DNA of 64,000 bases from an uncultured Deferribacterales bacterium. Its GTDB lineage: Bacteria > Chrysiogenota > Deferribacteres > Deferribacterales > Mucispirillaceae. Made by a program: the position numbers and the translations under genes. The DNA lies in NCBI GenBank assembly GCA_947853665.1, contig CANTXF010000025.1:1-64000 (forward strand). The letters run 5' to 3'. Below the pieces are notes generated by a model. That model was not told the DNA's origin. It saw only the letters and a program-made list of their open reading frames with translations, and made no database searches. Positions 4,417 through 59,368 of this stretch are shown here, piece by piece. The first letter of the stretch is position 1. Every line of letters begins with the position of its first letter.

Positions 4417-4447
4417 TTGTTCTCCTTAGTATTTAAATTAAAAATTG

Positions 4448-4700
4448 CAGCTATACCCTTGTATAGATTAAAGCAAAGTTATGGAAAATAATTATCATAT
4501 CTGCTCTTAAGGCATCAAAAATATTCATGATCATACCTGCGCGGCAAGGCAAACTCAAGGGGCAAAAGACCATCAAAGAGCGCTTTGCCAAACGCTCCGG
4601 GTAAGATTATTCATTGCCGCCGCAAGCCGTGGTATTATAAATATTCTCCATAACTATCTGCGTTAGGGAATAGCCGCTTTAAAAATAAACCGCTTCTAAA
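4448..4700. repeat. Dispersed ~250-bp intergenic element, copy 1 (core in inverted orientation)
   Basis: This copy fills most of the 444-bp gap between the antiporter and LpxR-like genes. The left flank (CAGCTATACC...AAAGTTATGG) and right flank (TATCTGCGTTAGGGAATAG...) match those of copy 3 at 51350-51600 in the same orientation. The 177-bp core 4478-4654, bounded by GTTATGG and CCATAAC arms, matches copy 3 only as its reverse complement. For example GCGCGGCAAGGCAAACT at about 4540 equals the complement of AGTTTGCCTTGCCGCGC at about 51478. I see no convincing gene inside. Confidence 0.7.
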
Positions 4701-44933: not shown

Positions 44934-45140
44934 CATCTATACCATTATATGCAGCATAGCAAGGCGTGGGAAATGTTTATAATACGGCGGCTTGCGTCCG
45001 TCAATCAGGAATGGAACCGACGCGTTGGGTAAATAACCGTTTGAGGGCTTGACCCGGGTTCGCTTTGCCTCGGAGCCGCTGTTATAATCATTTTCCGTTC
45101 ATTATCTGCCTTATTGGATAGTCATATTTAAAAATATTTC
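44934..45140. repeat. Dispersed intergenic element, copy 2 (diverged)
   Basis: This copy fills most of the 369-bp gap before moeA. Its flanks (TCTATACCATTATATG at left, ATTATCTGCCTTATTGGATAG at right) and the GTGGGAAATGTTTATAATAC arm align with copy 3. The core segment GCGTTGGGTAAATAACCGTTTGAGGG matches the GCGTTTGGCAAGACACTGTT region in the same orientation. The core is shorter (about 138 bp) and more diverged. It contains no gene I can support. Confidence 0.55.
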
Positions 45141-51323: not shown

Positions 51324-51349
51324 AAGGCCGTTTGCCGTATTTTGTTTCA

Positions 51350-51600
51350 CAGCTGTACCATTGCGTATATTAATGTAAAGTTATGGGAAATATTTATAAT
51401 ACGGAGACTTATAGCGGCAATAAATAATAAGGCTAAAAGCGTTTGGCAAGACACTGTTTGATGGGCAAACTCTCTTTAGTTTGCCTTGCCGCGCAGGTCA
51501 TATTATGAATGTTTTTGACGGCTAAAGAACATTATTATAATTATTTGCCATTACTATCTATGTTAAGGGATAATCGCCTTTTGTTTTAAGCTCCGTTTAA
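51350..51600. repeat. Dispersed intergenic element, copy 3
   Basis: This is the reference copy of the family and occupies most of the 423-bp gap after cysS. Left flank: CAGCTGTACC...AAAGTTATGG. The arms GTTATGGGAAATATTTATAAT and its imperfect complement ATTATAATTATTTGCCATTAC bound a 175-bp core (51380-51554). The right flank starts TATCTATGTTAAGGGATAAT. Inside, GGCAAACT/AGTTTGCC form a hairpin with a 6-nt loop. The remainder to 51746 shows nothing else. Confidence 0.7.
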
Positions 51601-58929: not shown

Positions 58930-59117
58930 AAAACGGGACGCGCTCAATTTGGTCGCGTCGTTTTCTGCACACGGAGCGGAGCGTAGCCAAAACGGGACGC
59001 GTTCAATTTGGTCGCGTCGTTTTAAAGCAAGCTCGGAGCAGAAACATCCGCATTAAATAAGGCGGATATTTTTTATCCGACAAAACTGGACGCGCATAAT
59101 TTGCCGCACGCCGTTTT
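58930..59117. repeat. Three short palindromic direct repeats in a gene-poor region
   Basis: The 58775-59410 stretch has no convincing gene. It carries 35-bp units at 58930-58964 and 58989-59023 that differ at one position, and a diverged 36-bp unit at 59082-59117. Each begins AAAACnGGACGCG, has a core like CAATTTGG, and ends in CG(n)CGTTTT-like sequence that pairs back to the start, so every unit is an imperfect hairpin. Unit spacing is 59 and 93 bp. Confidence 0.6.
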
Positions 59118-59161
59118 ATGTGTTCATTATAAGGATCGTTCTGGCGGGTAAATCCGTGGTT

Positions 59162-59368
59162 TTATCTTCTTAAAATATGCCTGAGGGCCTTTTTGGTAAG
59201 TTTCTTTATCGTTGGGTCGCAAGCCGCTTTTTTATAATTATTCCCCGCAAAGCGGCGCTGATTTATGGAACGGTATGGCTGTGTTCCGCTTTTTTCACCT
59301 AGCTTTTTACCGGTAGAATAGGCCGGATATACTTTACCGCGCGGGCGGTTAAAAACGCGGATTATATC
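59162..59368 (-). pseudogene. Basic open frame without a start codon (possible remnant)
   Basis: A 68-codon frame between two stops on the minus strand encodes a Lys/Arg-rich stretch ending LTKKALRHILRR. No ATG, GTG or TTG lies in it. It might be the 3' remnant of a lost gene or chance. It sits beside the short palindromic repeats. Confidence 0.2.

What the first reader, a model, noticed from the sequence alone, without database searches (positions are those of the whole stretch)
4478..4654. Core of an intergenic repeat is inverted relative to its flanks
Copies at 4448-4700 and 51350-51600 share flanks on both sides in the same orientation: CAGCT[A/G]TACC and AAAGTTATGG on the left, CTATCT..GTTA..GG on the right. 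The ~175-bp core between the GTTATGG..CCAT[A/T]AC arms is reverse-complemented in one copy. A 17-bp exact match (GCGCGGCAAGGCAAACT against its complement) anchors this. The cores differ by only 2 bp in length. This is the pattern left by inversion at short inverted repeats and could be a small DNA switch or a mobile element with a recombining core.
Basis: partly seen in the sequence, partly recalled or inferred. Interest (0 to 1): 0.72.

Follow-up and report, generated by a model that had tools for sequence, protein, structure and literature searches.

The report
MITE family with inverted-core subfamily
The two repeats are copies of a small parasitic DNA element that lacks its own transposase and occurs about 110 times in this gut bacterium's genome; in about ten copies the middle was flipped relative to the ends, most likely once or a few times long ago, and the flipped form then spread by transposition, so it looks like a fossil rearrangement and not a working genetic switch.

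Summary
The copies at 4446-4678 and 51348-51578 share both outer ends in the same orientation, while the ~178-bp core is reverse-complemented (opposite-strand core E 1.5e-27; same-strand ends E 1.5e-8 and 9.6e-5).

The whole ~232-bp unit, ends plus core, is one MITE-like element. It has terminal inverted repeats and an exact 8-bp AT-rich target-site duplication at both copies. About 110 copies or fragments were found in this 2.43-Mb genome, an uncultured relative of Mucispirillum. None was found in 39 relatives, 84,980 GTDB genomes (exact pattern) or IMG/VR (exact pattern).

Of 69 copies with both ends typed, 57 are P-core-Q, 10 are the inverted Q-core-P form (including 4446-4678) and 2 are P-core-P. 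Five inverted copies have perfect 8/8 duplications. Eight of ten share a Q-end variant absent from all 57 normal copies, and three share one internal deletion. This points to one or a few ancestral inversions at the short inner inverted repeat (AGTTATGG/CCATAACT), then amplification by transposition.

No resolvase-family recombinase was found, and no evidence of ongoing switching. The mobilising transposase was not found. It is a new member of a known kind (bacterial MITEs); core inversion has precedents. Interest is modest.

The parts
4446..4678 (+). Complete MITE copy of the inverted form (Q-core-P); the finding's copy
   Evidence: Bounded by identical 8-mers; ends typed Q (28.0 vs 10.6) and P (26.0 vs 14.6)
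4438..4445 (.). Left target-site duplication TTAAAAAT
   Evidence: 8/8 identical to 4679-4686
4679..4686 (.). Right target-site duplication TTAAAAAT
   Evidence: 8/8 identical to 4438-4445
4477..4655 (+). Core, AGTTATGG...CCATAACT, inverted relative to the ends when compared with the common form
   Evidence: Core HMM 151 bits on + against 30 on -; opposite-strand match to 51379-51555
51348..51578 (-). Complete MITE copy of the common form (P-core-Q read on the - strand)
   Evidence: Bounded by identical 8-mers; ends typed P (21.0 vs 10.8) and Q (29.0 vs 9.0)
51340..51347 (.). Target-site duplication TTTTGTTT
   Evidence: 8/8 identical to 51579-51586
51579..51586 (.). Target-site duplication TTTTGTTT
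   Evidence: 8/8 identical to 51340-51347
51379..51555 (-). Core of the common-form copy
   Evidence: Core HMM 160 bits on - against 30 on +
44967..45088 (-). Degenerate copy of the same family (partial core, weak P and Q ends)
   Evidence: Core HMM 51 bits, E 2.1e-14
59110..59250 (+). Very degenerate copy of the same family
   Evidence: Core HMM 26.5 bits, E 6.8e-7

Best explanation
Ends and core together form one ~230-bp non-autonomous transposable element (MITE) that inserts into AT-rich intergenic DNA with an 8-bp target duplication, mobilised in trans by an unidentified transposase. The common form is P-core-Q. P (GGCGGCTATCCCCTAACGYAGAT) and the reverse complement of Q (CGCAGCTATACCCTTACGYAGATTAATGTAA) are similar but distinguishable terminal inverted repeats, each followed inward by AGTTATGG and a further arm of ~15-17 nt. 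In one or a few ancestral copies the segment between the inner arms was inverted, which swapped the two end types relative to the core. The likely route is exchange or polymerase template switching between the short inverted-repeat arms of the folded element. The rearranged form kept functional ends and transposed; at least ten copies exist, one of them 4446-4678. Shown: the inverted arrangement, the family, the 8-bp duplications around both forms, the shared derived characters of the inverted copies. Inferred: the transposase, the inversion mechanism, the number of inversion events.
For: About 110 copies or fragments in the assembly. 8-bp duplications just outside P and Q: 23 of 61 copies have at least 7/8 identity against 0.9 expected from re-paired flanks, with length 8 standing out. 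Five inverted copies have perfect 8/8 duplications (C25:4477, C34:76791, C39:9803, C27:9380, C5:13739). TTAAAG in the Q end of 8/10 inverted and 0/57 normal copies; the same internal deletion in C13:1976, C27:9380 and C61:2756. Inverted copies cluster on the core tree (5 changes against 9.5 for shuffled labels, 0 of 500 as low), and one clade is not rejected (p-AU 0.169). P-core-P copy C26:12104, whose two ends share the rare CTGACAGCGGAT form, shows exchange between ends. Template switching is known to cause both spacer inversion and arm homogenisation at short inverted repeats (PMC8604942).
Against: No transposase with matching ends was found, and three candidate families are absent. The core tree is weakly supported and its best topology needs 5 changes, so several independent inversions are possible. 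A permutation test for general homogenisation of the two arms was mixed, so the template-switching step is inferred only.
Confidence: 0.83

Rival explanations
1. Active invertible DNA switch: a site-specific recombinase flips the core between the GTTATGG/CCATAAC arms at many loci.
For: Core inverted between short inverted repeats. Four tyrosine-recombinase domains in the assembly, one ~470 bp from an element copy.
Against: Orientation follows ancestry: 8/10 inverted copies share a Q-end variant seen in 0/57 normal copies, and three share a deletion. Label clusters on the core tree. No PF00239 hit. Only 10 of 69 typed copies are inverted. One copy near one of four recombinases is unremarkable with ~110 copies in 2.43 Mb.
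Confidence: 0.06
2. Nested insertion: the core is a separate element that inserted in either orientation into a site within another repeat made of P and Q.
For: Would give conserved flanks with the core in either orientation.
Against: Target duplications lie outside P and Q, none was seen at the core edges. Of 39 P-end matches all but one adjoin a core; the exception (C67:24371) is a copy truncated inside the core. No empty P-Q repeat was seen.
Confidence: 0.03
3. Inversions arose independently in place at several loci by homologous exchange between the arms, with little later spread, as reported for Correia elements.
For: The best core tree needs 5 changes and scatters inverted copies. C39:9803 and C5:13739 lack the TTAAAG variant. 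Correia elements are reported to invert in Neisseria (PMC10969869).
Against: Shared TTAAAG variant and shared deletion in most inverted copies; one clade is not rejected (p-AU 0.169).
Confidence: 0.12
4. Assembly artefact: the assembler joined wrong ends or flipped cores at a dispersed repeat.
For: The genome is a 68-contig draft and many contigs end in copies of this element.
Against: Five inverted copies in mid-contig have identical 8-bp duplications on both sides, which chimeric joins would destroy. Inverted copies carry their own diagnostic variants. Exact repeats shared by the two arms are only about 8-10 bp.
Confidence: 0.03

Closest known systems
Bacterial MITEs such as Chunjie of Geobacter uraniireducens (235 bp)
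   Same: Size, terminal inverted repeats, direct repeats at the target, mostly intergenic, dozens of complete and partial copies in one genome (PMC10969869)
   Different: No sequence comparison was made; an inverted-core subfamily with distinguishable ends is not described in the passages read
Correia repeat enclosed elements (Neisseria)
   Same: Short high-copy intergenic MITE reported to undergo inversion (PMC10969869 citing Elbeyioglu et al. 2017)
   Different: Here the flip is of the core relative to its own ends and follows ancestry; no in-place flipping was shown. Own knowledge: Correia elements target TA, not an 8-bp site
Spacer inversion and arm homogenisation at short inverted repeats by polymerase template switching
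   Same: Predicts both rearrangements seen, core inversion (QP) and like-ended copies (PP) (PMC8604942)
   Different: Described there for spacers of a few bases in yeast genes; here the spacer is ~160 bp and the event ancestral, so the mechanism is inferred only

Membership tests
MITE | Short (<500 bp), no coding capacity, many dispersed copies | tested here: met
   ~232 bp; about 110 copies or fragments; no copy convincingly inside a long ORF
MITE | Terminal inverted repeats | tested here: met
   P and rc(Q) consensus agree at 26 of 31 aligned sites
MITE | Target-site duplication | tested here: met
   8 bp; 23 of 61 at 7/8 or better against 0.9 expected
MITE | Ends shared with an autonomous insertion sequence whose transposase mobilises it | tested here: inconclusive
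   No matching parent in the draft assembly; PF01610, PF12762 and PF01609 absent; other families untested
Invertible DNA switch (site-specific inversion) | Same locus found in both orientations | not testable with these tools
   One assembly only; no reads; no match in other collections
Invertible DNA switch (site-specific inversion) | Dedicated recombinase linked to the invertible segment | tested here: inconclusive
   PF00239 absent; four PF00589 hits, one ~470 bp from a copy, with no further link
Invertible DNA switch (site-specific inversion) | Orientation independent of ancestry of copies | tested here: not met
   TTAAAG in 8/10 inverted and 0/57 normal copies; label clusters on core tree
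Correia element | Sequence relationship to Correia ends | not tested
   Considered as a parallel only
Known structured RNA family (Rfam) | Covariance-model match | tested here: not met
   Only a tRNA at 1418-1489 in the window; stem changes mostly one-sided

The most novel reading that the evidence does not exclude
Core inversion in this MITE family is recurrent and still going on, driven by a host or unidentified recombination activity at the AGTTATGG arms, so that many intergenic sites can flip a small cassette and perhaps alter neighbouring transcription.
Probability: 0.06. Interest if true: 0.65.

Novelty: new member of a known kind. Interest (0 to 1): 0.28.

Why it matters
It adds a high-copy MITE family in an uncultured lineage near Mucispirillum, not detected elsewhere, and a clean case in which an internal inversion left transposition-competent ends and founded a subfamily. 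Because P and Q ends can be told apart, the family records end exchange (QP, PP) that symmetric MITEs would hide, so it could be used to estimate how often inverted-repeat elements flip or homogenise. It also warns that a core inverted against its flanks in a repeat need not mean a switch.

Tried and rejected
Nested insertion of the core into a P-Q repeat: rejected, duplications lie outside P/Q and no empty P-Q site was seen. Assembly chimera: rejected by perfect duplications at inverted copies. Autonomous parent at C67:24371, where a P end lacks a full core: only a truncated copy. Serine recombinase and ISL3, IS1595 and DDE_Tnp_1 transposases: absent. Structured RNA: no Rfam match, few compensatory changes. 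Outward promoter: TTGACN and TATAAT face outward in the left arm of 29 of 71 copies, but 26 of these have a 14-15-nt spacer, short for a sigma-70 promoter, and scans at the two copies were near or modestly above shuffles; no claim made. Exact arm pattern in GTDB and IMG/VR: no match; diverged relatives would be missed. General arm homogenisation by permutation: mixed, no excess at arm positions 9-30, excess at 31-60, none at the outer ends.

Full report
OBSERVATION. The core 4477-4655 matches 51379-51555 on the opposite strand (E 1.5e-27). The left (4448-4499) and right (4633-4680) ends match on the same strand (E 1.5e-8 and 9.6e-5). Sequence inspection with the duplication analysis sets the true limits: 4446-4678 flanked by TTAAAAAT twice, and 51348-51578 flanked by TTTTGTTT twice.

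THE FAMILY. Searching the window's own assembly (G000; 2.43 Mb, 68 contigs, 97% complete; window = C25:1-64000) with each copy gave dozens of matches. An arm pattern with up to 3 mismatches matched 183 times, with none for the reversed control, and a core-interior pattern 68 times. Regions around the listed hits were fetched. A core HMM built from 42 copies finds 110 non-overlapping copies or fragments, four of them in this window (4477, 44967, 51379, 59110). No copy lies convincingly inside a long ORF. Many contigs end within a copy, as expected of a dispersed repeat.

ANATOMY. The common form is P-core-Q. P is GGCGGCTATCCCCTAACGYAGAT; the other end read from outside is CGCAGCTATACCCTTACGYAGATTAATGTAA. 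The two ends agree at 26 of 31 aligned sites, so they are terminal inverted repeats that can still be told apart. Both are followed inward by AGTTATGG and a further arm of 15-17 nt. The whole element is a long imperfect foldback (z -4.1 for the 4446 copy; -2.4 and -0.6 for the two strands of the 51348 copy). Changes in the conserved stems mostly break pairs on one side, and the paired fraction barely exceeds shuffles (87.6% versus 86.9%). The copies therefore look like decaying insertions and not a maintained RNA.

TRANSPOSITION. The 8-mers just outside P and Q are direct repeats: 23 of 61 copies have at least 7/8 identity against 0.9 expected when flanks are re-paired among copies, and length 8 stands out from all lengths 4 to 16. 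The duplications are AT-rich. Ends and core thus moved together as one unit.

INVERTED FORM. Ends and core strand could be typed in 69 copies: 57 P-core-Q, 10 Q-core-P, 2 P-core-P (with strict margins 49, 10 and 2). The finding's copy is one of the ten Q-core-P. Five of the ten have perfect 8/8 duplications (C25:4477, C34:76791, C39:9803, C27:9380, C5:13739), so the inverted form was inserted as such, or inverted without disturbing its borders. Two facts show that it was copied after inversion. Eight of ten carry TTAAAG in the Q end, a variant found in none of 57 normal copies, and three (C13:1976, C27:9380, C61:2756) share the same deletion of the left inner arm. On a tree of cores without the terminal 9 columns, the inverted copies cluster (5 changes, 9.5 for shuffled labels, 0 of 500 as low), and holding them in one clade is not rejected (p-AU 0.169). 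Branch support is weak with 160 columns, so one origin and a few origins are both possible; C39:9803 and C5:13739, which lack TTAAAG, are candidates for a second origin or an early branch.

MECHANISM. The breakpoints lie between the distinguishable outer ends and the inner arms, i.e. at or near AGTTATGG/CCATAACT. Template switching between inverted-repeat arms inverts spacers and homogenises arms (PMC8604942). The P-core-P copy C26:12104, whose two ends share the rare CTGACAGCGGAT form, fits copying of one arm from the other. A family-wide test for arm homogenisation was mixed, so this step is inferred. No PF00239 recombinase is detectable. Four tyrosine-recombinase domains exist; one is about 470 bp from a copy, but with ~110 copies in 2.43 Mb that is unremarkable.

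DISTRIBUTION AND ORIGIN. The element was not found in 39 relatives, 14 of them of the same family, in GTDB r220 by exact pattern, where records of the own genome may be left out, or in IMG/VR by exact pattern. The P end is absent from 15 relatives. CysS from the window is 71-72% identical to Mucispirillum and about 50% or less to anything else, so the host is probably a Mucispirillum-related lineage (inference). No transposase of the ISL3, IS1595 or DDE_Tnp_1 families is in the assembly; the parent may be lost, unassembled, or of a family not tested.

COMPARISON. The unit meets the defining features of a MITE that could be tested (size, copy number, terminal repeats, target duplication). Chunjie of Geobacter is similar in size and behaviour, and Correia elements are reported to invert (PMC10969869). 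The inverted-core subfamily is a variation with precedents. As a DNA switch it fails the one test possible here, since orientation follows ancestry; polymorphism at a locus could not be tested.

Noticed in passing
C26:12104-12275 and C26:13123-13276 (own genome): Two neighbouring copies about 1 kb apart in opposite orientation both carry P-type ends at both sides; the first has the rare CTGACAGCGGAT form at both ends, as if one arm had been copied from the other.
   Followed up: partly
C33:23380-23539 (own genome): The right end is a patchwork: outermost 13 nt P-type (GGCGGCTATCCCC), the rest Q-type, suggesting short-patch exchange between ends.
   Followed up: no
core of the family, e.g. 51379-51555: The left arm of 29 of 71 copies holds outward TTGACN and TATAAT, mostly 14-15 nt apart; too close for a standard sigma-70 promoter, but recurrent.
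   Followed up: partly
C10:67300-67812 and C10:68281-68422 (own genome): A 307-aa tyrosine recombinase ORF lies about 470 bp from a truncated element copy; probably chance given ~110 copies.
   Followed up: partly
ends of C5, C10, C12, C15, C16, C17, C24, C34, C36, C59, C60, C63, C66 and others: Many contigs end inside a copy, several pairs at the same core position, which suggests that some copies share identical stretches and may be recent.
   Followed up: no
   Followed up: yes
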